Source: Desulfobulbaceae bacterium
GTDB lineage: Bacteria > Desulfobacterota > Desulfobulbia > Desulfobulbales > Desulfobulbaceae
Assembly: GCA_019163135.1 (NCBI GenBank)
Contig: JAFLKR010000065.1
Coordinates: 1-45,583 of the forward strand
DNA: 45,583 nt
Reading direction: 5' to 3'
Positions 5,680 through 25,202 of this stretch are shown here, in pieces. Below the pieces are notes generated by a model. It was given only the letters and a program-made list of their open reading frames with translations, was not told where the DNA came from and ran no database searches. A program made the translations under genes and the position numbers. Positions within the stretch are counted from its first letter, which is position 1. Each line of letters begins with the position of its first letter.

Positions 5680-5687
5680 TTGGTACT

Positions 5688-7294: not shown

Positions 7295-7310
7295 TTTCGC
7301 AGTATGCTTT

Positions 7311-7338
7311 AACCCGGTAGTAATTTATCTGCCGGGTT
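7311..7338 (+). terminator. Hairpin terminator after csp
   Basis: AACCCGGTAG pairs with CTGCCGGGTT (one G-U pair) around an 8-base loop, 16 bases after the csp stop codon. It is followed by a weak T-rich stretch (TATCGTTTG). The position and stem fit an intrinsic terminator of moderate strength. From here to nadE (7339-7503) I see no further feature. Confidence 0.6.
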
Positions 7339-7503
7339 TATCGTTTGTGGACGGTGCGGAGCCTTTATTCTCCCTTTACAAATTCGTGCAGGTTTTCGAT
7401 CCGGTTCCTTTCTCTGCTGTCAGGTGGATTCAAGCGACCTGATACGTGTCAAGGTGACAGCGCCGCCTTTCGTGCGTCACGTTTTCCATAGGTTTAATCA
7501 GCT

Positions 7504-9129: not shown

Positions 9130-9162
9130 AGCTTTAAGCCCGGCCGCGTTCCGCCCTTGGGG

Positions 9163-9191
9163 CAGCCGCTTTGACGCCGCTGTTTTTTTTT
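9163..9191 (+). terminator. Intrinsic terminator after nadE
   Basis: CAGCCGC and GCCGCTG pair at six of seven positions around a 6-base loop and are followed directly by nine T residues (9183-9191). It lies 33 bases after the nadE stop codon and separates nadE from the cytochrome gene starting at 9251. Confidence 0.8.
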
Positions 9192-9250
9192 CATCCCCCG
9201 CCTGAGTTGCTGTTGCAGCCAGGCTCTATCCGAGACGATCAAAACGAGAC

Positions 9251-11020: not shown

Positions 11021-11067
11021 GGAATATTTTTCGGATGAATTTGTTCCGGCTCTGTTTTGATTGTTCT

Positions 11068-11076
11068 TGTTATAAT
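11068..11076 (+). promoter_or_regulatory. Extended -10 promoter of the aminotransferase
   Basis: TGTTATAAT is a perfect extended -10 element (TG-N-TATAAT). No good -35 is seen at the usual distance, which is common for extended -10 promoters. Transcription would begin near 11083, about 58 bases before the ATG at 11141. Confidence 0.5.
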
Positions 11077-11140
11077 CATCCAAAAGCGTTAGAGCGCACT
11101 GTTTTTTATCAATCGGATAACGATTCACGGAAGGAGTACA

Positions 11141-12352
11141 ATGATGTTGCCAGAAAAATTAACGCTTGCGGATCGGGTCCTGCAGGTTCCACCCTCGCCG
11201 ACTCTTGCCGTCAATGCCAAGGCGAAAGCTCTCAGGGCCGCTGGGGCGGATATATTGAATTTCAGTGTGGGGGAACCGGATATGTCGACTCCGGCCCACG
11301 TTTGCGAGGCGGGGAAACAAGCCATCGATGATGGCCATACCCGTTATACTCCAGTGGCCGGCATTCTTGAATTGCGTGAGGCGGTATGCGCTCGTTTTAA
11401 GAAAGAGCAGGGTTGGGATTATACGCCGGATCAGGTGCAGGTCAGCTGTGGTGGCAAGCATGGATTGTATAATATCTTTCAGGCGATTCTCAATCCCGGC
11501 GATGAAGTCCTCATCCCCGCCCCCTACTGGGTTTCGTATCCTCCCATGGTGCAACTGGCCGGTGGCACACCGGTGATCGTCCCGCTCAAGGAAGAAAACA
11601 ATTTTGACCTTGATCCGGTGGCGCTTGCCCAATATGTGACCAGTAAAACCAAGGCCATTATCCTCAACAGCCCGTCAAACCCCACCGGTGCCGTCTACTC
11701 CCAGGCATCCCTTGAAGCGGTGGCGAAGATGGCTTTTGATAACGGTTGGCTGGTGGTTTCCGATGATATGTACGAGGAACTCACCTATACCGAAGGGAAG
11801 ATTGCCCATATTCTCAACATCGACCCGCGGTTAAAAGAGCAGGTGGTGCTCTCGAACGGTGTATCCAAGTCTTTTGCGATGACCGGGTGGCGTATCGGCT
11901 ATTCCGTCGGGCCGATCGAGGTGATCAAGGCGATGAATAAGATTCAGAGTCAGTCCACCTCGAATCCCGCCGCGCCTTCCCAGTATGCAGCCCTAGCTGC
12001 CTTGACCGGTTCGCAGGATTTTCCCGGTCAGTTGCGGGAGGCCTTCCTGCCCCGCCGCGCTTTTTTTGTGAGAGAACTGCAAGCCATCAAGGGGGTGACC
12101 TGTGTGAACCCAATGGGGGCTTTTTATGTATTCCCCAATTTCTCGGCCTATTTCGGCAAAACCTTCCAGGGTAAGGTGATTGAAGGTTCTGTCGCCCTTG
12201 CCGATTACTTCCTGAGTGAAGCCAAGGTTGCCTCCGTGCCCGGCGCTGCTTTCGGTGCGGACGCTTTTATCCGTTTTTCCTTTGCCACCTCAATGGCGGT
12301 TATCGAGGAAGGGATGGCACGGATCCGGCAGGCGCTCGCCGCCTTGCGATAA
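11141..12352 (+). CDS. PLP-dependent class I aminotransferase
   Basis: This 403-aa enzyme belongs to the aspartate aminotransferase fold-type I family (subgroup I-gamma), which usually moves amino groups from aspartate or aromatic amino acids to 2-oxo acids. Visible motifs are FSVGEPDMSTP near the N-terminus, the NSPSNPTGAVY segment, SDDMYEEL, the PLP-binding Lys243 in SNGVSKSFAMTGWRIGY, and the C-terminal IRFSFATS containing the substrate carboxylate Arg. The start ATG has AAGGAG 6 bases upstream. It is preceded by its own extended -10 promoter and converges with the LysR gene across two hairpins. Aspartate is the likeliest substrate, but specificity cannot be read from motifs alone. Confidence 0.93.
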   Translation: MMLPEKLTLADRVLQVPPSPTLAVNAKAKALRAAGADILNFSVGEPDMSTPAHVCEAGKQAIDDGHTRYTPVAGILELREAVCARFKKEQGWDYTPDQVQVSCGGKHGLYNIFQAILNPGDEVLIPAPYWVSYPPMVQLAGGTPVIVPLKEENNFDLDPVALAQYVTSKTKAIILNSPSNPTGAVYSQASLEAVAKMAFDNGWLVVSDDMYEELTYTEGKIAHILNIDPRLKEQVVLSNGVSKSFAMTGWRIGYSVGPIEVIKAMNKIQSQSTSNPAAPSQYAALAALTGSQDFPGQLREAFLPRRAFFVRELQAIKGVTCVNPMGAFYVFPNFSAYFGKTFQGKVIEGSVALADYFLSEAKVASVPGAAFGADAFIRFSFATSMAVIEEGMARIRQALAALR

Positions 12353-12359
12353 ATTCTGT

Positions 12360-12387
12360 CCGGACAGGAGACTGTGTCCCTGTCCGG
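12360..12387. terminator. 9-bp perfect hairpin between convergent genes
   Basis: CCGGACAGG pairs perfectly with CCTGTCCGG around a 10-base loop, 7 bases after the aminotransferase stop codon. It has no long T tract on either strand. Its position between convergent genes suggests a shared terminator. Confidence 0.6.
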
Positions 12388-12395
12388 TATGTAAC

Positions 12396-12421
12396 CAGCA
12401 ACAGCCACCACGCTGTTGCTG
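12396..12421. terminator. Second hairpin between convergent genes
   Basis: CAGCAACAG pairs perfectly with CTGTTGCTG around an 8-base loop. It lies 34 bases before the 3' end of the minus-strand LysR gene and right after the first hairpin, so the convergent junction carries two stem-loops in tandem. No T tract is seen. Confidence 0.5.
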
Positions 12422-12454
12422 CGGCCTTAAAATATGACTGCGCATAAGAGGTCG

Positions 12455-13468
12455 TCACTCGTCGGTTATGTCTCGGCTGCCCTCGGAAGAACGGCTGCTC
12501 TCCTGGTCTATTTTGTATTTTTCCAGCAAGGATTGCAGTTTCCATGGAGAGGCGAGGCATTCCCGCCCTAGATGACTTGCAGCGACCACTTCGCAGAATC
12601 GGAGGAATTCAGCCATCAGGCGGGTGATGATTTTGTCCTTGTGCTGGATGATCCAGAGTTGTCGGCTCATATCCATCCCTTCTATGGGCAGTATTTTCAA
12701 CCATCCTTCTTCCGCCTCCCGGCAGACCGCCAACATCGAAAGGCAGGCGGCTCCCACCCCTGATTCCACCGCCTTCTTGATAGCCTCGGTGTGTCCGGTT
12801 TTAGTAACCACTTTGAGCAGAGAGGCGTGACGTCCCAATTTTTTTGTGAAAATTTCAGCGGTTCCCGATCCTTCCTCCCGCATGACCCAACTGGTTTCCT
12901 TGAGATCTTCCGGTATCTTAAAGGTTGAATGTCCGGCCAGTTTGTGGGTCGAACTGACAATGATACCTAGCTCATCTTCAAACCAGGAGGTCGCAATCAA
13001 TGCATCCACATTGATATCCCCCTCAACGAAGCCGAGATCGGCCTGACCCGTTGCTACTAGTTTTTCCGCGGTCATGGTGTTGACCACCAGCATGTTGATA
13101 TGAGCTTCGGGGTGCATTCGCATGAACGCGCCGATGAGGTAGGGCAGGACATAGTTGCCGATGGTCGAACTGGCGACGATTTCCAGGACACCAGCGACCA
13201 CACCCTGCTGTTCGGTCAGTATGGTCTCAATATTGGCCACCTGGTGGAGGATGGCCTTGGATAGGGGCAGGAGATATCGGCCGCGGTCGTTGAGCAGAAG
13301 ACTACGGCCGTGACGGTCAAAAAGCGGGCCGCCCAATTGGTTCTCCAACTCGCCCAAAGCCATGCTGACCGCCGATTGGGTGAGGATGAGTTTCTTGCTT
13401 GCCCGGGTGACCTGCTGGGTCTCAGCGACTGCAATGAATATTTCTAGTTGCCGGAAGGTAATAGCCAT
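12455..13468 (-). CDS. LysR-family transcriptional regulator
   Basis: A 337-aa LysR regulator. The winged helix-turn-helix is at residues 4-62 (FRQLEIFIAVAETQQVTRAS, then TQSAVSMALGELENQLG). A long linker helix and a type 2 periplasmic-binding-protein effector domain follow (about 90-300) with ASSTIGNYVLP, ADLGFVEG and GVGAACLSM. The effector domain resembles the CysL/YeiE group. The C-terminus carries an extra 30 or so polar residues rich in Ser and Asp. The gene is transcribed away from nuoA across 261 bp and converges with the aminotransferase. LysR proteins often regulate the divergent neighbour, here the complex I operon, but that is inference. The effector is unknown. Confidence 0.93.
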   Translation of the reverse strand: MAITFRQLEIFIAVAETQQVTRASKKLILTQSAVSMALGELENQLGGPLFDRHGRSLLLNDRGRYLLPLSKAILHQVANIETILTEQQGVVAGVLEIVASSTIGNYVLPYLIGAFMRMHPEAHINMLVVNTMTAEKLVATGQADLGFVEGDINVDALIATSWFEDELGIIVSSTHKLAGHSTFKIPEDLKETSWVMREEGSGTAEIFTKKLGRHASLLKVVTKTGHTEAIKKAVESGVGAACLSMLAVCREAEEGWLKILPIEGMDMSRQLWIIQHKDKIITRLMAEFLRFCEVVAASHLGRECLASPWKLQSLLEKYKIDQESSRSSEGSRDITDE

Positions 13469-13501
13469 AAATTTCGTTCTTATCAGCCTGATTGAATATA
13501 C

Positions 13502-13513
13502 TTATGATCGTAA
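13502..13513. promoter_or_regulatory. Possible LysR operator
   Basis: TTATGATCGTAA is a near-palindrome fitting the T-N10/11-A form of LysR binding boxes. It lies 34 bases upstream of the LysR start codon and 120 bases before the nuo -35 element. It is short and AT-rich, so chance occurrence is quite possible. Confidence 0.25.
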
Positions 13514-13632
13514 TTGAAGATACGCTAAACTAACACTCCGGAAAAATTGGTCAATGACTTTCCGGTTGCGAACGGGAATATTTCAGGGGATGACGGAAAA
13601 AGATTGAATAATCATTCATTGGAATTATGCTC

Positions 13633-13661
13633 TTGACATCAGTTTCGCTTTTCAGTAGTTT
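13633..13661 (+). promoter_or_regulatory. Promoter of the nuo operon
   Basis: A perfect -35 TTGACA (13633-13638) is followed after 17 bases by TAGTTT (13656-13661), with TTTAAT overlapping just downstream. Transcription would start near 13668, about 60 bases before the nuoA ATG at 13730. No other clear promoter is seen until the terminator at 25222. Confidence 0.55.
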
Positions 13662-13729
13662 AATAGGTTGTGCTGATAAATAGTATCAGTTGGATTGATG
13701 TCAACGTGGCACTTTTTCAGGAGATCGGG

Positions 13730-14137
13730 ATGGACCAGGTTGTTCTTACCAATATCATCTATGTGACTATTTTTTTGATTGGTGCCTTGTTGTTTGGTTT
13801 CGGGCCGATCATTATCGTCCATCTGCTCAGTCCGTCTTCTCATACCCGGCAGAGTGCCGGACGTGCGGAGCAGTTGATTGAATGCGGCATGGAGCCTATC
13901 GGCAGCGCCTGGATTCGGTTCGGCATCGTGTATTACCAATACGCCCTTATTTTTCTCGCCTTTGATGTCGATGTCCTCTTTCTCTTTCCCGTGGCCGTCG
14001 CCTACAATAGCCCGGAACTCGGTTTCCGGGATTTTTTTGAAATCTTGATATTTGTCGCCATTTTATCCTTAGCTATAGTCTATGCCTGGTGTAAAGGAGT
14101 GTTTACATGGGAACGGAAAACATACCTTCCTCAATAG
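13730..14137 (+). CDS. nuoA: NADH-quinone oxidoreductase subunit A
   Basis: NuoA is a three-helix subunit of the complex I membrane arm that packs against NuoH and NuoJ near the quinone cavity. The 135-aa product shows the family motif [19 protein letters not shown] followed by the acidic helix [15 protein letters not shown] chose ATG 13730 (AGGAG 9 bases upstream); the frame is open to a GTG at 13670, which would add an unlikely polar 20-residue extension. It overlaps nuoB by 31 bases, suggesting translational coupling, and opens an 11-subunit operon read from a TTGACA promoter. Confidence 0.95.
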
Positions 14138-14604
14138 TGCAGTTCGCCCAACTTGACAAACTGCTCAATCTCGGCCGGGCTAATTCGCTCTGGCCCATGA
14201 CCTTCGGTTTGGCTTGCTGTGCCATTGAAATGATGTGCACCGGTGGTTCCCGTTTTGACATTTCCCGCTTTGGCGCCGAAGTGTTTCGCCCGTCGCCCCG
14301 GCAGAGCGATGTGATGATTGTGGCCGGTACCATCAATAAAAAACTGGAGATGGCGGTCAAAACTCTTTATGACCAGATGCCCGAACCCAAATGGGTGATT
14401 GCCATGGGCAATTGCGCCATCTCTGGGGGGCCGTTCAAGGGCAAGGGAAACTATAACGTGGTGGAAGGGGCCGACAAACTGTTCCCGGTTGATGTTTACA
14501 TTCCCGGTTGTCCGCCGCGTCCTGAGGCCCTGCTCGAGGGGATAATGACCCTTGAGGAGAAAATTACCGGAAAACGACGCTGGCCGCGGGTACACGTGGG
14601 CTGA
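14107..14604 (+). CDS. nuoB: NADH-quinone oxidoreductase subunit B
   Basis: NuoB carries the terminal 4Fe-4S cluster N2 that passes electrons to quinone. The 165-aa protein has the ligands Cys37 and Cys38 ([10 protein letters not shown]), Cys103 (GNCAISGG) and Cys135 (PGCPPRP). The spacing between the third and fourth Cys is 32 residues, three more than in E. coli, because of a small GKG-containing loop. AAAGGAG lies upstream of the ATG, inside nuoA. NuoC starts 14 bases after its stop codon. Confidence 0.97.
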
Positions 14605-14618
14605 ACGAGTAGCGAGCA

Positions 14619-15134
14619 ATGGAACGACAAGAACAGACCCGAATCGCATTGGCGAAACTTTTTCCGGCTGAACCCGTGGTGGCGGCCGCTGTTGCTGCTG
14701 AGGGCTCCAATCAGGAGGAACTCCCGCCAAGGTTGGCGGGCGTGGTGTCCCAGGATTTTGCCCGTCACGGCAGTCATCTAGATGTTCTTTGCCACTCGGA
14801 ACAAGTGGTGGCCGTGGCGGAGATCATGGATTCCGAAGGCTTTTTTCTTGAGTCTATTGCCGGGGTCGACTGGCTTGATAAGCAACAGCTGGAAGTCATT
14901 TATGACTACAACCGGCTAGGCGGCGAACACTGTCGGGTGACGGTTCGTACCTTGATACCCCGTATCGAACCGGTGGTGCCGACCATTTGCGGGGTTTTTC
15001 CCGCAGCCGACTGGCACGAACGGGAGACTTTCGATTTTTATGGGGTGCATTTTCAGGGGCATCCCAACCTGATCCGGATTCTCCTGCCGGAAGATGCCGA
15101 TTTTCATCCACTTTTAAAGGATTTTATGCCATGA
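14619..15134 (+). CDS. nuoC: NADH-quinone oxidoreductase subunit C
   Basis: NuoC (30-kDa subunit) is a peripheral-arm scaffold packed against NuoD. The 171-aa protein has a variable, Ala-rich N-terminal part (about residues 1-50) and the conserved end with VPTICGVFPAADWHERETFDFYG, the 30-kDa signature, then RILLPEDADFHPLLKDF. It is a separate gene, not fused to nuoD as in E. coli. Its stop codon overlaps the nuoD start in an ATGA. Confidence 0.95.
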   Translation: MERQEQTRIALAKLFPAEPVVAAAVAAEGSNQEELPPRLAGVVSQDFARHGSHLDVLCHSEQVVAVAEIMDSEGFFLESIAGVDWLDKQQLEVIYDYNRLGGEHCRVTVRTLIPRIEPVVPTICGVFPAADWHERETFDFYGVHFQGHPNLIRILLPEDADFHPLLKDFMP

Positions 15135-16249
15135 CCGTTCCTGTACACCTGCGGCATGATGAAACCTTTGTCCTCAACCTGGGGCCGCAGCATCCCGCCA
15201 CCCACGGCGTTTTGCGGGTCAAATTGACCATGGACGGCGAGTATGTGGTCAAGGCGGAACCGGTGCTGGGATATATCCACCGCATGCACGAAAAAATGGC
15301 CGAGGGCGGTACCTTTGCCCAGTTCATGCCCAATACCGCCCGTATGGATTATCTGCACGCCTTAGCCTTCAATCACGGCTATGCCCTGGTGGTCGAAAAG
15401 GCTGCCGGTATCGAGGTGCCGGAACGGGCGGAATTTATTCGGGTGATCACGGTTGAGCTCAACCGGATTGCCAGCCACCTGTTGTGGTGGGCCGCCTTCC
15501 TGCTTGATCTCGGCGGATTCACGCCGTTGCTCTATGCCTTTGACGACCGTGAAAAGATTATCGATTTGCTCGAAAGGGTCACCGGGTCTCGCCTGACCTA
15601 CTGCTACATGCGTTTCGGCGGGGTCTACAACGATATCGACGACGAATTCATTACCGGCACCCGTGAATTCATCAAACGTCTCCGCAGTCGGCTGCCCCGG
15701 TTCTATCACGATCTGGTTACCCACAACATCATCCTGATCAAACGGATCAAGAATATCGGCATCATTACCCCGGAACAGTGCCGCCGTTACGGCGCTACCG
15801 GTCCGGTAGCCCGGGGCTCTGGGATCAGCTATGACATCCGTAAGAACGAGCCCTACTCGGTGTATCCGGAATTCGATTTTGATGTCCCGGTCTTCGAAGA
15901 ATGCGATTCTATGGCACGCTATATGGTTCGCATGCATGAAATGGAGCAGTCGCTGCGGATCATCGAACAGGCTCTTGATAAACTGCCAGACGGTCCGGTG
16001 ATGGGCAAAGCCCCCAAAATGCTTAAACCCGAGGCGGGTTACTATTATTCCGCCGTGGAAACCGCGCGGGGGTCCCTGGGGCATCGGCTGGTCTGCGATG
16101 GCGGCAAAAACCCTTACAAACTGAAACTGCGCTCCCCGACCTTTTCCAATTTAAGTTTGTACGGCGAGGTGGCCGAGGGGATGATGCTGGCGGATGCGCT
16201 GGCCTTCATGGGCAGCCTGGATCTGGTTATTCCCGAGATTGACCGTTAA
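15131..16249 (+). CDS. nuoD: NADH-quinone oxidoreductase subunit D
   Basis: NuoD (49-kDa subunit) is related to the large subunit of NiFe hydrogenases and forms the quinone-binding cavity with NuoB. The 372-aa protein begins MTVPVHLRHDETFVLNLGPQHPATHG, where the loop around His in GPQHPATHG lines the quinone site. It continues with GYIHRMHEKMAEGGTFAQ (a variant of the common GYxHRG-EK motif), RIASHLLWW, GATGPVARGSG and ends near LVIPEIDR. I start it at ATG 15131, which overlaps the nuoC TGA by 4 bases; the open frame running back to 14987 overlaps nuoC and lacks homology. No hydrogenase Cys ligands are seen. Confidence 0.96.
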   Translation: MTVPVHLRHDETFVLNLGPQHPATHGVLRVKLTMDGEYVVKAEPVLGYIHRMHEKMAEGGTFAQFMPNTARMDYLHALAFNHGYALVVEKAAGIEVPERAEFIRVITVELNRIASHLLWWAAFLLDLGGFTPLLYAFDDREKIIDLLERVTGSRLTYCYMRFGGVYNDIDDEFITGTREFIKRLRSRLPRFYHDLVTHNIILIKRIKNIGIITPEQCRRYGATGPVARGSGISYDIRKNEPYSVYPEFDFDVPVFEECDSMARYMVRMHEMEQSLRIIEQALDKLPDGPVMGKAPKMLKPEAGYYYSAVETARGSLGHRLVCDGGKNPYKLKLRSPTFSNLSLYGEVAEGMMLADALAFMGSLDLVIPEIDR

Positions 16250-16268
16250 TCGAGGGGGGGGGAACGAT

Positions 16269-17261
16269 ATGGATACAAGTATTTGGCGCGCCCTGTTCTA
16301 TCTGGTGGGCATAATGGCTTTTGCCGGCCTCAATGCCGCCTATCTGGGTTGGTGCGAACGAAAGGGCGCCGCCCGAATCCAACGACGGATCGGGCCATGT
16401 GAGGCCGGATATGGCGGCTTGTGGCAACCCCTGGCCGACGGCCTCAAACTGATGAGCAAGCAATTGCTTGTGCCTCAGGGAGTCGATGGCATCATTTTCC
16501 GGCTGGCACCGGTGCTGGCCATGGTTCCGGCCATCACTTCCATGGTGGTCATACCTTTTTCCGAAAATATTCAAGCTCGGGCGATGGAACTCTCGGTTCT
16601 GCTCCTCTTTGCCCTTGCCTCGCTGGGTATGCTCGCCATCCTGCTGGGCGGCTGGGCCTCGGGAAACAAGTATGCGATTATTTCCTCGGCCCGCGCCGTT
16701 TCCCAGAACCTTGCCTACGAAATCCCTATGCTGGTGACCGTGATCACCGTGGTGATGATCTCCGGTTCAATGAACCTGCGCGAGATCGCCATCGATCAGC
16801 AGGGCGGCTTCTGGCACTGGAATATTTTCCGTCTGGAAAACGGTCATTTCCTCACCATGTGGATTTCCTTTATCATCTTCTTCATTTGCTCGGTGGCCGA
16901 AACTAACCGGGCCCCCTTTGATATGGCTGAGGCAGAGAGTGAACTGGTGGCCGGATTCATGACCGAATACGGCTCCATGGGGTTTGGCCTGTTCATGATG
17001 GGGGAATATCTCAACATCGTAGTCGGCGCCTGTCTGACCGCCACCCTGTTTCTCGGCGGCTGGGACTGCCCCTTCGGCCTGACACCTGGGGTATGGTGGT
17101 TCCTCATCAAAATCTATGTCCTTATATTTACCTTTATCTGGATCCGCTGGACTTATCCGCGTACCCAGATCTACCGACTGCTTAACTTGAGCTGGAAAAT
17201 ACTTATTCCCTTTTCGCTGGCCAACCTGCTGATTACCGCAGCCCTGATCAAGGTGTTTTGA
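16269..17261 (+). CDS. nuoH: NADH-quinone oxidoreductase subunit H
   Basis: NuoH (ND1) is the eight-helix membrane subunit linking the peripheral arm to the membrane arm and closing the quinone tunnel. The 330-aa protein has the hallmark ERKGAARIQRRIGP-like loop (residues 24-38), the acidic loop after AETNRAPFDMAEAESELVAGFMTEY, and a basic C-terminal IRWTYPRTQIYRLLNLSWK. I start it at ATG 16269, as the earlier open frame lies inside nuoD. A G-run just upstream acts as the ribosome site. Because nuoG, F and E are missing between nuoD and nuoH, this junction shows the truncated operon type. Confidence 0.96.
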   Translation: MDTSIWRALFYLVGIMAFAGLNAAYLGWCERKGAARIQRRIGPCEAGYGGLWQPLADGLKLMSKQLLVPQGVDGIIFRLAPVLAMVPAITSMVVIPFSENIQARAMELSVLLLFALASLGMLAILLGGWASGNKYAIISSARAVSQNLAYEIPMLVTVITVVMISGSMNLREIAIDQQGGFWHWNIFRLENGHFLTMWISFIIFFICSVAETNRAPFDMAEAESELVAGFMTEYGSMGFGLFMMGEYLNIVVGACLTATLFLGGWDCPFGLTPGVWWFLIKIYVLIFTFIWIRWTYPRTQIYRLLNLSWKILIPFSLANLLITAALIKVF

Positions 17262-17263
17262 AT

Positions 17264-17716
17264 ATGAATGGCTATTGGAGTGATATCTTCATCGGCAGTA
17301 AGAGCCTGGTCACCGGTCTGCTGATCACTGCCAGGGAATTTTTCAAACCGGTGGTGACCGAGCAGTATCCCTACGAAGTGCCGACTATGACCCCATTGTT
17401 CCGGGGACACATCGAACTCATCGGCAACGAGGAAACCGGAGCGCCCAACTGCGTGGTCTGCGGCATGTGTCAACGGGCCTGCCCTTCCGAATGTATCAGT
17501 TTGGACGGCAAGAAGGCAGAGGGGGGGAAAGGCAAGGTGCTGATCAGCTACATGCTCGATTTCACCAAGTGCAGTCTCTGCGGTTCTTGCGTGGAAAGTT
17601 GCAATTTCAACGCGCTGCGTTTTTCCAAGGAATACAATCTGGCCAGTTTCGATAAAAATGACTTTATCATGGACCTGCTGAAACGGTTGGAGGATCAGAA
17701 CAGATGCAAACAATAG
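17264..17716 (+). CDS. nuoI: NADH-quinone oxidoreductase subunit I
   Basis: NuoI carries clusters N6a and N6b, which pass electrons to NuoB. The 150-aa protein has two CxxCxxCxxxC motifs: Cys63, 66, 69 and 73 (CVVCGMCQRAC) and Cys103, 106, 109 and 113 (CSLCGSCVESC), with Cys77 next to the first. I start it at ATG 17264; a TTG at 17258 would overlap the nuoH stop. It overlaps nuoJ by 13 bases. Without NuoEFG, its ferredoxin-like surface is a plausible entry point for electrons from another donor. Confidence 0.96.
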   Translation: MNGYWSDIFIGSKSLVTGLLITAREFFKPVVTEQYPYEVPTMTPLFRGHIELIGNEETGAPNCVVCGMCQRACPSECISLDGKKAEGGKGKVLISYMLDFTKCSLCGSCVESCNFNALRFSKEYNLASFDKNDFIMDLLKRLEDQNRCKQ

Positions 17717-18258
17717 TCTGCCAGACGACGGCCGCCCCAGCGCTCTTTACCGCGGAAGGCATGGTCGGGGTCATCTTCTTGCTGACCGTGACCCTGGTGT
17801 TAACCGGCGCGGTAATCGCAGTCAATGCCCAGCGCCTCGTTCGGGCCGTGGCCGGACTGGCGATATGTTTTACTGGCTTGGCCGGAGTTTATTATTTTCT
17901 GCTCAGCCCCTTTCTTGCCATGATGCAACTGCTGATCTATGTCGGCGCAGTCTCCATCCTGATAGCGTTTGGCATCATGATGGCCGATCCGGAGGAAAAG
18001 CGGGGGGTCGGGATGAAAAATCGTTCGCCGCTGGCCGGCCCGCTAGCCTTCAGCACCGGCGCTCTGATGTTTGCCGCCCTGACCGTGCTGGGGCTGAAAA
18101 CCCAGTGGCAGGTTTTTCCCCGTCAAGGGACTTTTGATATCAAGGCGGTCGGCATGGCCCTGTTGACCACCCATTCCCTGGTCTTCGAACTCATCTCCAT
18201 TGTCCTTTTACTGGCCATCATTGGGGCCCTGGTCCTTGCCCAGAGGGGGAGAAACTAA
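17704..18258 (+). CDS. nuoJ: NADH-quinone oxidoreductase subunit J
   Basis: NuoJ (ND6) is a five-helix subunit of the membrane arm, whose third helix shifts during the catalytic cycle. The 184-aa product shows the signature helix FLAMMQLLIYVGAVSILIAFGIMM (residues 69-92) followed by a charged loop, and ends in a long hydrophobic helix with ALVLAQRGRN. The start ATG lies inside the end of nuoI. Length is normal for the family. Confidence 0.94.
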   Translation: MQTIVCQTTAAPALFTAEGMVGVIFLLTVTLVLTGAVIAVNAQRLVRAVAGLAICFTGLAGVYYFLLSPFLAMMQLLIYVGAVSILIAFGIMMADPEEKRGVGMKNRSPLAGPLAFSTGALMFAALTVLGLKTQWQVFPRQGTFDIKAVGMALLTTHSLVFELISIVLLLAIIGALVLAQRGRN

Positions 18259-18261
18259 CCG

Positions 18262-18588
18262 ATGCTACTGCTCAATCTCTACAACTGTCTGTCGACCTAT
18301 CTGGTCATCGGTGCGGCGCTTTTTTCTTTTGGGGTGTACGGCATGGTCGTTCGGCGAACCGTGATCGGCATGCTGATCTCCTCGGAATTCATCTTGGCTG
18401 CCGCCTCAACCAATTTCATGGCCTTTAACCGATTTCTGGCCCCGGACCCTGTGGTCGGCCAGATTTTCACCCTGTTCATCATGGCCATCGCTGCCGCCGA
18501 GGCTGCCATCGCCATCAGCATAATGATTGCCGTCTACCGAAATTTCAAGACGATTGATACCGACGATCTCGTTGATTTACAGGGGTAA
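18262..18588 (+). CDS. nuoK: NADH-quinone oxidoreductase subunit K
   Basis: NuoK (ND4L) is a small three-helix subunit with two conserved membrane Glu residues on the proton path. The 108-aa product contains both: one in helix 2 (SSEFILAAASTNFMAF) and one in helix 3 (AIAAAEAAIAISIMIAVYR). It starts 3 bases after the nuoJ stop codon, with a purine-rich GGGGGAG upstream. The family size is about 100 aa, so it is complete. Confidence 0.95.
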   Translation: MLLLNLYNCLSTYLVIGAALFSFGVYGMVVRRTVIGMLISSEFILAAASTNFMAFNRFLAPDPVVGQIFTLFIMAIAAAEAAIAISIMIAVYRNFKTIDTDDLVDLQG

Positions 18589-18602
18589 CCGGAGAAATAA
18601 CC

Positions 18603-20099
18603 ATGGATACCGTTTCTACCACTGCGCATATCGTCGAAAACTCCAACCTGCTGCTGGCGGTGCTGATCCCGCTTTTCGGTAGTCTGGTGGTCATGACTCT
18701 TAAGAATCATCCTAATTTGCGGGAACTTGTTTCTTCCTGCTCTTCGATTCTGCTCTTCTTCATGGTCCTTTCCTTCATCCCGGCCTTGAAGGCAGGCAAA
18801 ACCCTGGTTTATCCGATCTTCCAACTGCTGCCCGGACTGTCCATCACCCTGCGGGCCGACGGTTTTTCGATGATTTTTGCGATGGTCGCCTCCTCGCTGT
18901 GGGTGATCGCGGTGTTCTACTCCATGGGCTACATGCGCGCCCACGACGAGCCCTGCCAGACCCGGTTCAATGCCTGTTTCGCCCTGGCAATTTTTGGCGC
19001 TATCGGGGTGGCCCTTTCTGATAACTTCCTGACCCTCTACCTATTCTACGAGATTGTCTCGGTCTGCACCTATCCGCTGGTGGCCCATCATCAGGATGAG
19101 GAATCCTATGAAGGGGCGCGAAAATACATTATTTATCTGACCACCACCGCAAAATTTTTTCTGTTGCCGGCGCTCATCCTCATCTATGTGCTGGTCGGCA
19201 ACCTCGATTTCCCCCATAATATCAACACCGGCATCATCCCCGCCACCGCCACCGACTGGATGGTGACCATGCTTTATATCTTCTGCATCCTCGGCTTTGC
19301 CAAAAACGGGGTCATGCCGTTCCACCATTGGCTCCCTGGAGCGATGGTGGCGCCAACCCCGGTCTCGGCCCTGCTGCATGCGGTGGCAGTCGTCAAGGTC
19401 GGCGTGTTCTGCACCACTCGAACCATGCTCTATGTCTTTGGGGTGGAAACCATGGATCGGCTCAACCTGGGGATTCCCACCGCCTATTTTGTCGGGTTTA
19501 CCATCCTCATGGCCTCGGTAATCGCCTTGTCCAAAGATAATCTCAAAGCTCGGTTGGCGTATTCCACGGTCAGTCAACTTTCCTACATCATTTTGGGTGT
19601 GGCTCTGTTGACCCCGCACGGCATCGAGGGTGGCCTGATTCACATTGTCAATCACGCCTTTTCCAAGATCACTCTGTTCTTCTGCGCTGGCGCTATCTAT
19701 ATTGCCTCCCACAAGAAATACATTTCGGAGATGAGCGGACTGGGGCGGACCATGCCCTTTACTTTCGGGGCCTTTGCCGTAGCATCCCTGTCCATGATCG
19801 GTGCACCGCCGGTTGCCGGGTTCGTTTCCAAATGGTATCTCCTGGTCGGTTCGATGGAGGCGCATCAGGTCGGCATCCTGGTGATCCTCATCGCTTCCAC
19901 CGTGCTTAACGTCGGCTACTTCGCGCCGGTGACCTACAAGGCCTTTTTCGGCAAACGGCCGGAAGGGGCAGCGGAGACTGGCATTAAAGAGGCGCCGCTA
20001 AGCATGCTGATTCCTTTGCTGATTGCCGTAACGGTTTCGGTGATCATCGGTATTTATCCCAATTTCATGATGCAATTTGTCTGGATGGTAACAGGATGA
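18603..20099 (+). CDS. Antiporter-like subunit, NuoL position (498 aa)
   Basis: This 498-aa, about 14-helix protein lies where nuoL is expected but is closer in size and motifs to MrpD/NuoM-type subunits. It lacks the C-terminal lateral helix of true NuoL (about 610 aa). All charged residues thought to move protons are present: Glu150 (TM5, LFYEIVS), Lys234 (TM7, FAKNGVMPFHHWLP), Lys265 (TM8, VAVVKVG) and Lys410 (TM12, FVSKWY). The loop after TM5 has an unusual HHQDEE run. It begins 14 bases after nuoK and its end overlaps the 91-aa gene in an ATGA. It is probably a pumping subunit of the complex. An independent Mrp-type antiporter is less likely because it lies inside the nuo operon. Confidence 0.88.
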   Translation: MDTVSTTAHIVENSNLLLAVLIPLFGSLVVMTLKNHPNLRELVSSCSSILLFFMVLSFIPALKAGKTLVYPIFQLLPGLSITLRADGFSMIFAMVASSLWVIAVFYSMGYMRAHDEPCQTRFNACFALAIFGAIGVALSDNFLTLYLFYEIVSVCTYPLVAHHQDEESYEGARKYIIYLTTTAKFFLLPALILIYVLVGNLDFPHNINTGIIPATATDWMVTMLYIFCILGFAKNGVMPFHHWLPGAMVAPTPVSALLHAVAVVKVGVFCTTRTMLYVFGVETMDRLNLGIPTAYFVGFTILMASVIALSKDNLKARLAYSTVSQLSYIILGVALLTPHGIEGGLIHIVNHAFSKITLFFCAGAIYIASHKKYISEMSGLGRTMPFTFGAFAVASLSMIGAPPVAGFVSKWYLLVGSMEAHQVGILVILIASTVLNVGYFAPVTYKAFFGKRPEGAAETGIKEAPLSMLIPLLIAVTVSVIIGIYPNFMMQFVWMVTG

Positions 20100-20371
20100 C
20101 GAATCTTATTGAATATCTCCAAGCCCGCCTCAAGGCAGTGGTGACGATTTGTTTTGTCGTGCTGGCCGGTGTCGCCGCATCATCCTTGCTGGTCGACACA
20201 GGCCATGCCCACACCTGGGTAGAGCAGCATGTACCTTTTTTCTGGTCTTTTTTTGGCTTTAGCGCCGCTGCGGTGATCATTGGCGTTGCTCGCTGGCTGG
20301 GTGGTTCCGGTATCCAGGCCCCGGTCGATTTTTACGAAGTCTCCAATTCTACGCCCTGTGAGGAAGAATAA
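20096..20371 (+). CDS. Small two-helix membrane protein in nuo operon
   Basis: I do not recognise this 91-aa product. It has two predicted membrane helices (about residues 12-34 and 47-67), a short loop rich in His and Trp (GHAHTWVEQHVPFFW), and an acidic tail ending CEEE. It starts in an ATGA overlap with the 498-aa subunit and ends on the base where the 596-aa subunit starts, so all three are translationally coupled. The tight packing and position between two antiporter-like subunits suggest an accessory subunit of the membrane arm. The alternative is an assembly factor. Confidence 0.75.
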   Translation: MTNLIEYLQARLKAVVTICFVVLAGVAASSLLVDTGHAHTWVEQHVPFFWSFFGFSAAAVIIGVARWLGGSGIQAPVDFYEVSNSTPCEEE

Positions 20372-22161
20372 TGGCCTCCAGTTTTATTCATCCGTCGCTG
20401 CTGCTGATCCTTGGTGCGCTGCTGTTACCGTTTATCCAGGGGCCGTTGCGCAAACCGTACCTTTTCCTGGTTCCTCTGCTGGCTCTGGGGGCGGTGGTAT
20501 TGAACACCACGTTGACCGGAAATTTTGCCACGGTCCTGTTTCTCGACTGGCAACTAGTCTTCGGCCGCATCGATAAACTCACCACGGTCTTTGCCCTGAT
20601 CATGGCGTTGATGGCGGTGATCGGCACCTTGTACGGGCTCCATGTCGATCGGGCCGGGGAACATATGGCCGCTTGGATCTATGCCGCCGGATCGCTGGGG
20701 ACCATTTACAGCGGAGATTACCTTAGCCTCTTTTTTTTCTGGGAGATGATGGCCTTTTCCTCGGCCTTTCTGGTCTGGTTCCGCCGCCGGAAACAGTCGC
20801 TGAGCGTCGGCTACCGCTATCTCCTCATTCACACCATCGGCGGCATCGTTCTTCTGGCCGGCATCCTGCTGCGCTATCAGGCGGTCGGCAATATCACCTT
20901 TGAGCTGATGGATATTGCCCATCCTGAGCTTTACACCTGGCTGATAATGATCGGGTTCGGGCTTAATGCCGCGATGGTCCCGCTGCATAGTTGGCTGCCA
21001 GAGGCCTACTCCGAGGCCTCTTTCAACGGTGCGGTTTTCCTCTGTGCCTTTACCACCAAAACCGCAGTTTATACCCTGGCACGTGCTTGTGCCGGCATGG
21101 ACATCCTCGTGGTGCTTGGGGTGATCATGGCCCTGTACGGCGTCATTTACGCGGTCATGGAAAACGATATACGCAAGTTGCTGGCCTGGTCGATCGTCTC
21201 CCAGGTCGGGTATATGGTCGCCGGTATCGGCATAGGGACAGACCTGGCCATCAACGGGGCGGTTGCCCATGCCGTGGTCCATATTCTCTATAAGAGCCTG
21301 CTGTTCATGGGGACGGGAGCGGTCCTCTACATGACCGGCAAGACCAAATTCACCGAACTCGGCGGACTTTATCGGAAAATGCCCGCGACCTTTTTCTTTA
21401 CGATCATCGGCTGCCTGTCAATTTCAGCGGCCCCAGGTTTTGCCGCCTATGTCAGCAAGTCAATGATCATCGGCGCGGGCTTCGAGAGTCATCTTAACTG
21501 GGCCTCCTGGCTCTTGATGTTCGGGGCCACCGGCACCTTCATGTATAACGGATTAAAATTACCTTATTTTCTATTTTTCGGACCGAATAACTGCAGTGCG
21601 GCTACCTGGAAAAAGGCTGGCGATCCTACCTGGAACATGCTGATCGCCATGACACTGGGGGCCACGCTCTGTGTTCTCGTAGGTATTGCCCCCGGTTTTC
21701 TCTATGCCATGTTGCCCTATACCATGAACTACAACCCCTACACAGCCTACCATCTGCTGGAGACCCTGCAGTTGCTGGGGTTTGCGACCCTGGCTTTTTT
21801 TCTGCTCAAGAAATATGTAGAACCGGTTGATCGCATCTGTCTCGATATCGACTGGCTGTATCGCCAGGCCGGCGGTGGGTTTCTCTGGTTGGTGAAGGGG
21901 CCTCTGCAATGGTGTGATACCGCCTGGGGCGAAGCCTATCGAGTGGTGGGACTCTCTTCCCTGATGACGCTGAGCCGGTTCTGGAGTTGGTTTGATTGGC
22001 ACGCCATTGACGGAGTGGTCGATGGTATTGCCCGATCTGTTCGTGGACTGGGCGGCAAGGTTCGCGTGCTGCAAAGCGGCCATATCCAAATGACCCTTTA
22101 TTATGCGTTCTCCCTCGCTGCGATTTTGTTTGTCACCTTCATCTTTTTTCAGCTGCTCTAA
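20371..22161 (+). CDS. MrpD-like antiporter subunit with C-terminal tail
   Basis: A 596-aa member of the proton-translocating antiporter family, closest to proteins labelled Na+/H+ antiporter subunit D. Glu125 (TM5, FFWEMM), Lys230 (TM8, FTTKTAVY) and Lys363 (TM12, YVSKSM) are present. The TM7 position usually held by Lys is Asn199 (GFGLNAAMVPLHSWLP). After the 14-helix core it has about 120 extra residues: a segment with several Trp and, near the end, GKVRVLQSGHIQMTLYY followed by a last helix, much like the NuoL C-terminus. It could therefore supply the NuoL lateral-helix role. It starts on the last base of the 91-aa gene and is followed 14 bases later by nuoM. Confidence 0.87.
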   Translation: MASSFIHPSLLLILGALLLPFIQGPLRKPYLFLVPLLALGAVVLNTTLTGNFATVLFLDWQLVFGRIDKLTTVFALIMALMAVIGTLYGLHVDRAGEHMAAWIYAAGSLGTIYSGDYLSLFFFWEMMAFSSAFLVWFRRRKQSLSVGYRYLLIHTIGGIVLLAGILLRYQAVGNITFELMDIAHPELYTWLIMIGFGLNAAMVPLHSWLPEAYSEASFNGAVFLCAFTTKTAVYTLARACAGMDILVVLGVIMALYGVIYAVMENDIRKLLAWSIVSQVGYMVAGIGIGTDLAINGAVAHAVVHILYKSLLFMGTGAVLYMTGKTKFTELGGLYRKMPATFFFTIIGCLSISAAPGFAAYVSKSMIIGAGFESHLNWASWLLMFGATGTFMYNGLKLPYFLFFGPNNCSAATWKKAGDPTWNMLIAMTLGATLCVLVGIAPGFLYAMLPYTMNYNPYTAYHLLETLQLLGFATLAFFLLKKYVEPVDRICLDIDWLYRQAGGGFLWLVKGPLQWCDTAWGEAYRVVGLSSLMTLSRFWSWFDWHAIDGVVDGIARSVRGLGGKVRVLQSGHIQMTLYYAFSLAAILFVTFIFFQLL

Positions 22162-22174
22162 AGGGAAGTAGAGA

Positions 22175-23695
22175 ATGGATCTGTTACTTATCAAAGAGGG
22201 GTTGCCCCTGCTCACTTTGCTGATTTTCCTGCCACTGGCTGGGGCCTTGGTTCTCCTCTTTTATCATGGGGAATCCTTCGCCCGTCTGTGGACTTTGGTC
22301 GTCACCTCGCTGACCGCAGTCGTATCCATCCTCCTGCTTACCGGTTTTAACTCGGCCAGTCCGAAATATCAGTTCGCTGAGGCCTACGAATGGATTCCCC
22401 GGTTCCATATCAATTATATCGTCGGGGTTGATGGCATCTCCATCCTCCTTGTGATCCTGACGACCTTTATTATGCCGTTTTGCGTCCTGGCATCCTGGAA
22501 ATATATTAAGAACCGGGTCACACCTTTCATGTTCTGCCTACTGATCATGGAAACCTCCATGATCGGTGTTTTTGTCGCCCTGGATTTTGTTTTGTTCTAT
22601 ATATTCTGGGAATTCATGCTTATCCCCATGTATCTGCTGATCGCGATCTGGGGTGGCCCTCGCAAGGTTTATGCTTCGATCAAATTCTTTCTTTATACGC
22701 TGGCGGGTTCAGTGCTCCTGCTGGTGGCCATCATTGCTCTCTACCTGAAGACCGGAAGCTTTTTCATTCCTTCGATGATGTGGCAGGAGTATACGCTCAC
22801 CTTTCAGGTGTTGGTCTTTCTCGCGTTTTTCCTGGCCTTTGCTATCAAAGTGCCGATGTTTCCCTTTCACACCTGGCTGCCGGCCGCCCATGTCGAGGCG
22901 CCGACCGCCGGATCGGTTATTCTGGCTTCGGTGCTTTTGAAAATGGGGACCTACGGTCTGTTGCGCTTCTGCCTGCCGATTACCCCGGATGCCACCATGC
23001 TCCTGGCCACCCCGATTCTGTGGCTCTCGATTGCCGGGATCATTTATGGCGGTTTCACGGCACTCGCCCAGCAGGACATGAAAAAATTGATTGCCTATTC
23101 CTCGGTCGGGCACATGGGGTTTGTTACTCTGGGGATTTTTGTGCTAAATTCTCGCGGTGTTGAAGGGGCAATCCTGCAAATGATCAACCACGGCGTTACC
23201 ACCGGCGCCCTGTTTTTGTGCGTGGGCATGATCTACGAACGCACCCACAGTCGGGAACTGGCGATGGCAAGCGGGGTTGGTAAATACATGCCCTGGTTCG
23301 CGACCTTTCTTGCGGTTTTTTCTCTATCCTCCTTCGGCTTTCCCGGCACCAACTCCTTTATCGGAGAATTTCTGGTGCTGGCTGGCACCTTTGAGAAGAA
23401 TACCATTCTGGCGCTTGCTGCCATCCCTGGTGCTGTTCTCGCTGCAGCGTATACCCTGCGGATGCTGCAAAAAGTCGTTTGGGGCGGGACGGCTAATCCC
23501 GATCAATCCTATCTCTCGGATCTCTCGGTTCGCGAGATTGTTATCCTTGCGCCCTTCCTTTTCTTTGTGTTCTGGATAGGATTGGGGCCGCAACCCTTTA
23601 TCGATCTGATTCATACCTCGGTGAGCCAGCTGTTGGAAAACCTGAACAACTGGCAGCAACAGCATCAGATTGCCGCAACCGTTCTGTGGCGTTAA
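22175..23695 (+). CDS. nuoM: NADH-quinone oxidoreductase subunit M
   Basis: NuoM (ND4) is the middle antiporter-like proton pump of complex I. The 506-aa, 14-helix protein is canonical: VGVDGISILLV near the N-terminus, Glu146 (IFWEFMLIP, TM5), Lys225 (AIKVPMFPFHTWLP, TM7), Lys256 (VLLKMGTYG, TM8) and Glu398 (FIGEFLV, TM12), the Glu at TM12 being a NuoM feature. GGAAG precedes the ATG. A 91-bp gap separates it from nuoN, the longest gap in the operon. Confidence 0.96.
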   Translation: MDLLLIKEGLPLLTLLIFLPLAGALVLLFYHGESFARLWTLVVTSLTAVVSILLLTGFNSASPKYQFAEAYEWIPRFHINYIVGVDGISILLVILTTFIMPFCVLASWKYIKNRVTPFMFCLLIMETSMIGVFVALDFVLFYIFWEFMLIPMYLLIAIWGGPRKVYASIKFFLYTLAGSVLLLVAIIALYLKTGSFFIPSMMWQEYTLTFQVLVFLAFFLAFAIKVPMFPFHTWLPAAHVEAPTAGSVILASVLLKMGTYGLLRFCLPITPDATMLLATPILWLSIAGIIYGGFTALAQQDMKKLIAYSSVGHMGFVTLGIFVLNSRGVEGAILQMINHGVTTGALFLCVGMIYERTHSRELAMASGVGKYMPWFATFLAVFSLSSFGFPGTNSFIGEFLVLAGTFEKNTILALAAIPGAVLAAAYTLRMLQKVVWGGTANPDQSYLSDLSVREIVILAPFLFFVFWIGLGPQPFIDLIHTSVSQLLENLNNWQQQHQIAATVLWR

Positions 23696-23786
23696 CGAGT
23701 GCATATGATTCCTGCAAACCCTGCTAACATCCTGCCCGCCGCAATACGCGGCCGGTGTTGAAGACACAAAAAGAAAGGCGATTTCT

Positions 23787-25202
23787 ATGGTTATCCTTCC
23801 CGAACTGGTGCTGCTGATCGGAGCCCTTGCTTTTTTTGTGATCAGCCTTGGCAAGATGCCCAATCCCCAAGTGGCGAAATTCACGGCACTGTCTTTTGGT
23901 TTTGCAACGTTCCTCGCCGCCTGTCTTTCCTTTCATTCGCAGGCAACGCTTTTCTACGGGGTGTATGCCGTTGATCAGTATTCCCAGTTGTTTAAAATAC
24001 TGATCGGTTTTTCTCTGGCCATGCTTCTGGTCGTCGGACAAAATCTCAAAGGGATTGCTGACCGGGTGCGGCCTGAATATTACCTGTTTCTGATGCTTAG
24101 CGTTCTCGGGCTGATGATGCTGGTGAGTTCGGTTGAACTGATCGCCATTTTTATCTCCCTTGAGCTTTCTTCGTTTGCCCTCTATCTCCTGGTACCCATG
24201 CGAGATGATCGTACCGGGATTCGGGTGCAGATGGAGGCCGGCATCAAATATATTCTGTTCGGAGTGATGGCCACCGGCTTTATGCTGTACGGCATGAGCT
24301 ATCTGTTCGGCCTGACCGGAACCACCTATCTTAAAGATATTATAGCATTCTTATCGAAAGGGAATCTACAGCCGGCGGTAGTGGTGGCCGTACTTATGAC
24401 CCTGGGCGGTTTTTTCTATAAACTGGCCGTATTCCCGATGCATTTCTGGGTTCCGGATATTTATCAGGGGGCCTCGAACGAGACCACCGGTTTTATCGCC
24501 ACCATTCCCAAATTGGGGGCGGTGGCGCTGCTGATCAGATTGTTGACCGTGCCGACCGGGCATCCCCAGTTTCTAACCGAACTGCTGGCGGTGGTGGCGG
24601 TCTGTTCGATGTTTTACGGCAATCTCAGCGCTTTGGTGCAAAAGGATATCAAGCGGATGTTGGGCTTTTCCGGGATTGCCCATGCCGGTTTTATCACCTT
24701 GGGGCTCCTGACCATGAGCAGCGAGGGGTATGGGATTGCCATCTATTATATAGCCGGTTATGTGCTGATGAATCTTGCCTGTTTTCTAGTGATCAGCAAT
24801 GTCTCCCAGGAAGGCGAAAACTTGCTGATCGAGGACCTTAGCGGCCTCTATCAGCGGCAACCGGTGCTGGCCTTTGTCCTTGCGGTGGGCCTTTTTGGCC
24901 TCGCTGGTATTCCGCCCTTTGTCGGCTTCATGGGCAAATTCATGATTTTGGCCTCGGCCCTGCGCGCCGATCATTTGCTGGTGGTCTGCCTGGCTGCCAT
25001 TAATACAGCCATTGCCATCTACTATTATCTCTGTGTGGTCAAAGCCGCCTATACAGCCGAACCCGGTAGTCGTCCTTCGGTAGAGGTGCATCCAGCGATT
25101 CAGGCAGCCGGGGTGATTTTGGTGCTCGCTATAGTCATGCTGGGAACTCTTCCGGCCAAGTTCGTCGATTTTGCAAGCGCCGTGGTCCAGACCCTACTGT
25201 AA
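23787..25202 (+). CDS. nuoN: NADH-quinone oxidoreductase subunit N
   Basis: NuoN (ND2) is the antiporter-like subunit nearest NuoK. The 471-aa protein has the TM5 Glu in ISLELSSFALYLL, the TM7 Lys in FYKLAVFPMHFWVPDIYQGA, a TM8 Lys in ATIPKLGAVA and the TM12 Lys in FMGKFMIL. GAAAGG lies upstream of ATG 23787. The leader between nuoM and nuoN (23696-23786) has no gene or clear promoter. The gene is followed by a strong terminator shared with convergent glyA. Confidence 0.95.
   Translation: MVILPELVLLIGALAFFVISLGKMPNPQVAKFTALSFGFATFLAACLSFHSQATLFYGVYAVDQYSQLFKILIGFSLAMLLVVGQNLKGIADRVRPEYYLFLMLSVLGLMMLVSSVELIAIFISLELSSFALYLLVPMRDDRTGIRVQMEAGIKYILFGVMATGFMLYGMSYLFGLTGTTYLKDIIAFLSKGNLQPAVVVAVLMTLGGFFYKLAVFPMHFWVPDIYQGASNETTGFIATIPKLGAVALLIRLLTVPTGHPQFLTELLAVVAVCSMFYGNLSALVQKDIKRMLGFSGIAHAGFITLGLLTMSSEGYGIAIYYIAGYVLMNLACFLVISNVSQEGENLLIEDLSGLYQRQPVLAFVLAVGLFGLAGIPPFVGFMGKFMILASALRADHLLVVCLAAINTAIAIYYYLCVVKAAYTAEPGSRPSVEVHPAIQAAGVILVLAIVMLGTLPAKFVDFASAVVQTLL

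What the first reader, a model, noticed from the sequence alone, without database searches (positions are those of the whole stretch)
18603..23695. Complex I membrane arm with four antiporter-like subunits
Standard complex I has three antiporter-like subunits (L, M, N). Here one operon encodes four: a 498-aa subunit with all four charged residues, a 596-aa subunit, canonical NuoM and NuoN, and a 91-aa membrane protein between the first two. No ordinary nuoL of about 610 aa is present. If all assemble, the pump could move more ions per electron pair, or one subunit could carry Na+. Complex I homologues with an extra pumping subunit (a duplicated NuoM) have been described in other bacteria. This arrangement differs because the extra members look MrpD-like and occupy the L position.
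Basis: partly seen in the sequence, partly recalled or inferred. Interest (0 to 1): 0.72.

Follow-up and report, generated by a model that had tools for sequence, protein, structure and literature searches.

The report
Green-type complex I in a Desulfobulbus
A bacterium related to sulfate reducers carries a respiratory proton pump in which one standard membrane subunit is replaced by three proteins; the swap is known from nitrogen-fixing bacteria, but one replacement lacks a residue thought essential for pumping, so it need not pump more.

Summary
One operon (about 13730-25202) encodes nuoA-B-C-D-H-I-J-K, then 498-, 91- and 596-aa proteins, then nuoM and nuoN, with neither nuoL nor nuoEFG. It is not new in kind: it is the published "green complex I", in which two "MrpD-like" proteins replace NuoL. 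A Sinorhizobium plasmid carries the same K-487-84-586-M-N block (52% and 47% identity). The 596-aa family is over cut-off in 46 of 55 relatives and also occurs in Verrucomicrobiota.

Three refinements. (1) In a tree the 498-aa family is sister to NuoL+MrpA, and the 596-aa family is its own clade; neither joins the sampled MrpD. (2) The 596-aa protein carries NuoL's lateral helix with a tail 26-31 residues longer than in three compared NuoLs, as expected if it straps one extra subunit. But its TM7 lysine, essential in NuoL, M and N, is Asn in 89 of 91 sequences and Ser in 2. Four subunits therefore need not mean four canonical pumps. (3) The same block follows MrpD, where no MrpA N-domain was seen, in the 11 Mrp-type operons examined: it looks like a portable module.

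The genome also has two ordinary nuoL genes, in other complex I clusters. Assembly, stoichiometry and ion are untested.

The parts
13730..14137 (+). nuoA (frame open from 13670, GTG; ATG at 13730 taken as start by eye)
   Evidence: NCBIfam subunit A models, best E 3.5e-23, below their cut-offs
14107..14604 (+). nuoB
   Evidence: PF01058, E 2.8e-30
14619..15134 (+). nuoC
   Evidence: PF00329, E 4.1e-31
15131..16249 (+). nuoD (start inferred within the frame open from 14987)
   Evidence: PF00346, E 8.5e-89
16269..17261 (+). nuoH (start inferred within the frame open from 16194)
   Evidence: NF004741, 315 bits, over its cut-off of 305
17258..17716 (+). nuoI
   Evidence: TIGR01971, E 4.4e-28, below its cut-off
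17704..18258 (+). nuoJ
   Evidence: NF005168, E 2.7e-26, below its cut-off
18262..18588 (+). nuoK
   Evidence: NF004322, E 1.5e-28; NF004320 over its cut-off
18603..20099 (+). 498-aa antiporter-like subunit (counterpart of green complex I 'MrpD1'); NuoL/MrpA-related core without the C-terminal lateral-helix part, all key charged residues
   Evidence: NF006236, 813 bits; TIGR01974 positions 4-484 of 630; tree; residues
20096..20371 (+). 91-aa membrane protein; helices 12-29 and 49-73 predicted; H39, W50, F53, Y80 invariant in a 39-row alignment
   Evidence: no Pfam or NCBIfam match; alignment A4; AF2 pLDDT 81.6, pTM 0.51; family found in 87 of 88 loci with one 498 and one 596 gene
20371..22161 (+). 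596-aa antiporter-like subunit (counterpart of green complex I 'MrpD2') with lateral helix and last TM; TM7 Lys replaced by N199
   Evidence: NF009310, 710 bits; AF2 pLDDT 86.9, pTM 0.81, helix 494-568
22175..23695 (+). nuoM
   Evidence: TIGR01972, 612 bits
23787..25202 (+). nuoN
   Evidence: TIGR01770, 345 bits

Best explanation
This is a green-type complex I without the NADH module (13 genes), from a Desulfobulbus-like bacterium. NuoL is replaced by a block of three proteins that travel together. The 498-aa protein acts as the NuoL-like terminal pump next to NuoM. The 596-aa protein sits distal to it and supplies the lateral helix that runs back over 498, NuoM and NuoN. The 91-aa two-helix protein probably seals or assembles the 498/596 interface. 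Electrons enter through NuoI/NuoB from an unidentified donor (ferredoxin, or an NADH module encoded elsewhere) and reduce quinone at NuoB/D/H; the charge wave passes through N and M into 498. Because the 596-aa protein lacks the Lys of the TM5-TM7 ion pair, I think it more likely (about 55%) that it does not pump canonically, so that H+/2e- stays near 4 rather than 5. Shown: gene content, order, conservation, residue loss, tail length, relationship to the rhizobial block. Inferred: assembly, subunit order, electron donor, pumping, role of the 91-aa protein.
For: A rhizobial plasmid has the block J-K-487-84-586-M-N in the same order, 52% and 47% identity for the two large proteins, and its 84-aa protein belongs to the 91-aa family (E 2.1e-23). 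PMC9040806 describes green complex I as two MrpD-like subunits replacing NuoL (passages). In the 80 named-genome loci kept, the 596-aa gene has Nuo genes beside it in 74, Mrp genes in 4, neither recognised set in 2; no NuoL was recognised within the stretches held of the 94 loci examined. Of 55 genomes (own and relatives), 46 have the 596-aa family and 48 the 498-aa family over cut-off. Lateral helix: D494 lies in the same DWLY motif as D542 of E. coli NuoL, and several structural alignments with rmsd under 3 end with model 512-514 at NuoL 560-562, the same register. From that Asp to the C-terminus there are 103 residues, against 77, 77 and 72 in three NuoL. [quoted passage not shown] TM7: Asn in 89 and Ser in 2 of 91, never Lys; mutating that Lys in NuoL, M or N gave loss of function (PMC3046159, passages).
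Against: No protein-level evidence that the subunits assemble together. E125, K230, K308 and K363 are conserved in the 596-aa family, so it may still pump. [quoted passage not shown] if that held for a distal 596, the family-wide Asn would have to be functional or bypassed. Only single chains were modelled, and the lateral helix is the least certain part (pLDDT 59 for 491-500 and 49-66 for 541-580). Mrp-context 596 proteins have similar tail lengths (101-107 in 8 of 11) although fewer antiporter-like subunits are expected there; their tail sequence differs, so tail length is not a clean ruler. The described rhizobial operon has nuoEFG; this one does not. The original 2016 and 2018 papers could not be read.
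Confidence: 0.8

Rival explanations
1. Same complex, but all four antiporter-like subunits pump, giving about 5 H+ per 2e-. Asn199 plus water or another residue replaces the TM7 Lys.
For: Four PF00361 proteins in one operon; E125, K230, K308, K363 conserved in the 596-aa family; PMC9040806 proposes a total of 5 to 6 ions for complexes with 1-2 extra subunits (passages); PMC9802314 concludes that a blocked subunit blocks catalysis (passages), which argues against a dead fourth subunit in the chain.
Against: TM7 Lys absent in 91 of 91 sequences; mutation of this Lys in NuoL, M or N gave loss of function (PMC3046159, passages).
Confidence: 0.3
2. The 498/91/596 block is an Mrp-like Na+ (or K+)/H+ antiporter element coupled to complex I, so that part of the exported charge is Na+.
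For: The same block follows MrpD in the 11 Mrp-context loci examined; the 498-aa family is sister to NuoL+MrpA.
Against: No MrpE, F, G or B was found in the window; PMC7684303 tentatively assigns Na+ in MBS to other subunits (passages); the genome has a separate cluster with a MrpA-like and a MrpD-like protein on C120.
Confidence: 0.1
3. The operon makes an ordinary complex I using a NuoL encoded elsewhere, and 498/91/596 form a separate complex.
For: Two full NuoL genes exist in the genome; related blocks sit in non-complex-I operons in other genomes.
Against: Each NuoL lies beside its own NuoM and NuoN; here the block lies between nuoK and nuoM with overlapping genes, and in 47 of 80 kept loci the order 498-91-596-M-N was recognised in full (others lack a gene in view or were truncated).
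Confidence: 0.05

Closest known systems
Green complex I of rhizobia (Degli Esposti & Martinez-Romero 2016; not read, known through passages of PMC9040806 and PMC7415380)
   Same: Two antiporter-like proteins in place of NuoL; in the S. medicae plasmid also a small protein between them and the order K-487-84-586-M-N; same TM7 Asn in the 586-aa protein (alignment A2).
   Different: The plasmid operon has nuoEFG and another order of the remaining genes; 47-52% identity.
Complex_I_3 of Candidatus Manganitrophaceae (PMC9040806, passages)
   Same: Two MrpD-like subunits in place of NuoL.
   Different: Five antiporter-like subunits, with two NuoM; a further 26-aa insertion in the lateral helix relative to rhizobial MrpD.
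2M complex I of Nitrospira (Chadwick et al. 2018; not held, known through PMC9040806)
   Same: Four antiporter-like subunits; a lateral-helix insertion of similar length in its NuoL.
   Different: Extra subunit is a second NuoM; NuoL kept.
MBS sulfane-sulfur reductase, chain 6u8y_X (MbsH')
   Same: Best solved sequence relative of the 596-aa protein (E 3e-41); carries the lateral helix (PMC7684303, passages).
   Different: Has the TM7 Lys (K217); two antiporter-like subunits in the proton module.
Mrp-type operons MrpE-F-G-B-C-D-498-91-596 in Desulfobacterota (this work)
   Same: Same 498-91-596 block, TM7 Asn (11 of 11).
   Different: No Nuo electron-transfer genes beside them; block stands where an MrpA N-domain would be expected; different C-terminal tail of 596.

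Membership tests
Green complex I | Two antiporter-like ('MrpD-like') subunits replace NuoL in a complex I operon | tested here: met
   definition from PMC9040806
Green complex I | The two proteins are counterparts of the rhizobial pair | tested here: met
   52% and 47% identity (596 aa: 98-100% of the query covered in the 40 listed plasmid rows); each falls in one clade with its rhizobial counterpart
Green complex I | NuoEFG in the operon (present in S. medicae; I do not treat it as defining) | tested here: not met
   No NuoE, F or G in the window; of 74 Nuo-context loci only L083 has a NuoG-like frame, on the other strand; L143, a truncated locus of unresolved context, has NuoE/F-like frames
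Complex I (Nuo) | NuoA, B, C, D, H, I, J, K, M, N present | tested here: met
Complex I (Nuo), canonical | One NuoL protein with antiporter core and lateral helix | tested here: not met
   Neither the 498- nor the 596-aa protein reaches TIGR01974's cut-off (217 and 140 bits against 407.5)
Mrp antiporter | MrpE, F, G, B subunits beside the antiporter-like subunits | tested here: not met
   None found in the window; present in the related Mrp-context loci
MrpD | Groups with MrpD in a tree | tested here: not met
   498 aa sister to NuoL+MrpA+HyfD (SH-aLRT 95); 596 aa its own clade (100); the 8 sampled MrpD elsewhere (quick tree, deep branches weak)
2M complex I | Second NuoM | tested here: not met
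   One NuoM only
Canonical antiporter-like pump | TM5 Glu / TM7 Lys ion pair in the 596-aa protein | tested here: not met
   E125 present, Lys replaced by N199
Four-subunit membrane arm | All four antiporter-like subunits assemble in one arm | not testable with these tools
   Only single chains could be modelled

The most novel reading that the evidence does not exclude
498-91-596 is a portable cassette that replaces the NuoL/MrpA N-unit in both complex I and Mrp antiporters, and its strap-bearing member has, throughout the family, given up the TM7 lysine held to be essential. These complexes would then have a longer arm but no additional canonical pump, separating arm length from H+/2e- stoichiometry.
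Probability: 0.45. Interest if true: 0.6.

Novelty: new member of a known kind. Interest (0 to 1): 0.4.

Why it matters
Complexes with extra antiporter-like subunits have been read as pumping 5 or more ions per electron pair (PMC9040806, passages). If the extra subunit lacks a working ion pair, that reading fails for green-type complexes, and they become natural test cases for whether each antiporter-like subunit pumps one proton. The 596-aa family is over cut-off in 131 of 296 genomes drawn across the phylum and occurs in Sinorhizobium, a cultivated model genus. Its presence in Mrp-type operons also offers an explanation for Mrp clusters reported without mrpA, such as that of Desulfurivibrio alkaliphilus (passage in PMC5016858); that genome was not checked here.

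Tried and rejected
Considered and rejected: MrpD membership of both proteins; a nuoL lost through frameshift or misassembly (frames intact; block found in many other genomes); chance gene neighbourhood.

Led nowhere: Pfam and NCBIfam on the 91-aa protein gave no match. No paper that discusses the TM7 substitution appeared in the listings; I claim only that. Degli Esposti & Martinez-Romero 2016 and Chadwick et al. 2018 were not read. Other papers were seen as passages only.

Rows dropped and limits: four of 94 loci were left out (596-type frame split or outside 560-640 aa); L057 and the truncated L123 were counted in its Nuo group although no J/K/H genes were seen beside them. Tail measure: 76 of 80 Nuo-group and 8 of 11 Mrp-group sequences had the anchor motif; of four NuoL sampled, the Prevotella one lacked the motif and was left out. 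In one search, 81 of 88 loci had the 91-aa family at first; 6 of the 7 misses came from a length cap and were recovered; L057 lacks it. The tree is a quick one with SH-aLRT support only; it warns of long branches (L057, HyfD, several NuoN). Against repeated transfer of the block: the 498 part of the tree does not force more than one change between Nuo and Mrp contexts, although the 596 part does. The NuoE/F/G and Mrp absence test in the window used BLASTP with one or two reference proteins per subunit, so very distant forms could be missed.
Full report
WHAT IS THERE. The window holds one complex I operon: nuoA-B-C-D-H-I-J-K, a 498-aa, a 91-aa and a 596-aa protein, nuoM, nuoN. The 498- and 91-aa genes overlap by 4 bases, the 91- and 596-aa genes by 1; 596 and nuoM are 13 bases apart. 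No NuoL, NuoE, F, G or MrpE, F, G, B was found among the window's ORFs. The genome (98.95% complete) has 14 PF00361 matches. Two are full NuoL, on C30 and C8, each beside its own NuoM and NuoN; C110 carries nuoEFG with nuoB/D-like genes and a partial nuoH, probably the missing part of the C8 cluster (inference). PF01512 (NuoF-type) occurs three times in the genome, none on the window's contig.

ORIGIN. The closest named 596-aa relatives are Desulfobulbus (86-88% identity; D. elongatus L064, Desulfobulbus sp. GS12 L070). I infer that the window is from that genus or near it.

WHAT IT IS. A Sinorhizobium medicae plasmid (CP140910.1, L048) has nuoJ-nuoK-487-84-586-nuoM-nuoN-A-B-C-D-E-F-G on one strand, with 52% and 47% identity for the two large proteins, and its 84-aa protein matches the 91-aa family (E 2.1e-23). 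[quoted passage not shown] PMC7415380 (passages) adds that it is upregulated in symbiosis. The window operon therefore belongs to that kind, without the NADH module.

HOW WIDESPREAD. NF009310 (596 aa) is over cut-off in 46 of 55 genomes, own and relatives, and 131 of 296 drawn across the phylum; NF006236 (498 aa) in 48 of 55. Of these 80, 74 have Nuo genes beside the 596-aa gene, 4 have Mrp genes and 2 have neither set in view. No NuoL was recognised in the stretches held of the 94 loci examined. The 91-aa family is present in 87 of 88 loci that have one 498 and one 596 gene.

RELATIONSHIPS. In a tree of 104 antiporter-like proteins (quick method) the 498-aa family is one clade (100), sister to NuoL+MrpA plus HyfD (95); the 596-aa family is another clade (100), away from MrpD, NuoM and NuoN. 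The database label "subunit D" should not be read as kinship to MrpD. Deep branches are weak (78-80).

THE 596-AA PROTEIN. AlphaFold2 (47-row alignment) gives pLDDT 86.9 and pTM 0.81, one helix 494-568 and a last helix 571-595. Confidence is low in parts of this region (59 for 491-500, 49-66 for 541-580). Its DWLY motif (D494) matches D542 of E. coli NuoL; several structural alignments to E. coli NuoL with rmsd under 3 end at model 512-514 paired with NuoL 560-562, the same register (ranges give only the ends, and other rows with rmsd near 10 or more run further). From this Asp to the C-terminus there are 103 residues, against 77 and 77 in the genome's own NuoLs and 72 in E. coli. [quoted passage not shown] This favours 596 as the distal subunit, strapping 498, M and N. 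A caution: Mrp-context 596 proteins have tails of 101-107 residues too, with a different sequence.

THE MISSING LYSINE. The TM7 Lys is opposite N199 in the five solved-structure alignments printed and in an L-INS-i alignment of 104 proteins. There the 28 sampled 596-type rows have Asn, and the sampled NuoL (4), NuoN (13), MrpA (3), MrpD (8), Hyf (3) and 498-type (28) rows have Lys; NuoM has it in 12 of 13, and the two L057 rows have Ser and Thr. Across 91 596-type sequences: Asn 89, Ser 2, Lys 0. PMC3046159 (passages) reports loss of function when this Lys is mutated in NuoL, NuoM or NuoN. E125, K230, K308 and K363 are kept in nearly all, so the protein is not simply decayed. My reading is that it is more likely a strap and distal cap than a fourth canonical pump, but this is inference at about 55%. 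[quoted passage not shown]

THE BLOCK IN ANOTHER MACHINE. In the 11 loci classed as Mrp context (L049-L055, L117, L121, L135, L139) the order is MrpE-F-G-B-C-D-498-91-596, MrpB being in two pieces in two of them. Pfam confirmed MrpE, B (with an MbhE domain) and C in L049, and E, F, G, B and C in L055. No MrpA N-domain was seen, so the block seems to stand in for it. On the 596 part of the tree Nuo- and Mrp-context proteins interleave (at least three changes forced by well-supported branches), but the 498 part does not force more than one, so repeated movement between the two machines is suggested, not shown.

NOVELTY. The kind is known and both large proteins have curated NCBIfam models. I did not see the TM7 substitution or the Mrp-operon role in the listings of the open-library searches, but the two key original papers were not available.

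Noticed in passing
L049-L055, L117, L121, L135, L139: Mrp-type antiporter operons in which 498-91-596 follows MrpD and no MrpA N-domain was seen; PMC5016858 reports an mrpBCDEFG operon without mrpA in Desulfurivibrio alkaliphilus (passage).
   Followed up: partly
L057 (G018) about 6104-12318: Diverged pair of 498-/596-like proteins with an M-like and a 772-aa N-like frame, no 91-aa gene, and no J/K/H gene recognised nearby; the 596-like protein lacks the TM7, TM8 and TM12 lysines.
   Followed up: partly
L094, L099: Alternative order K-M-498-91-596-N; the L094 NuoN groups with a NuoN of a canonical cluster of the window's genome, suggesting exchange of the block between complex I backgrounds.
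   Followed up: partly
L056 (G027) 7343-18712: A second, more diverged green-type complex I in a genome that also has the common form (49% and 52% identity for 596 and 498).
   Followed up: no
L046 (G000:C46) about 2017-9802: Frames similar to NuoB, NuoD and an antiporter-like subunit that groups with HyfF, near two large frames of 397 and 854 aa; possibly a group 4 hydrogenase-like complex.
   Followed up: no
window 9251-11020: 589-aa multihaem cytochrome c (Cytochrome_C7 match) upstream of the operon, with an aminotransferase-like and a LysR-like gene between (those two names by eye).
   Followed up: no
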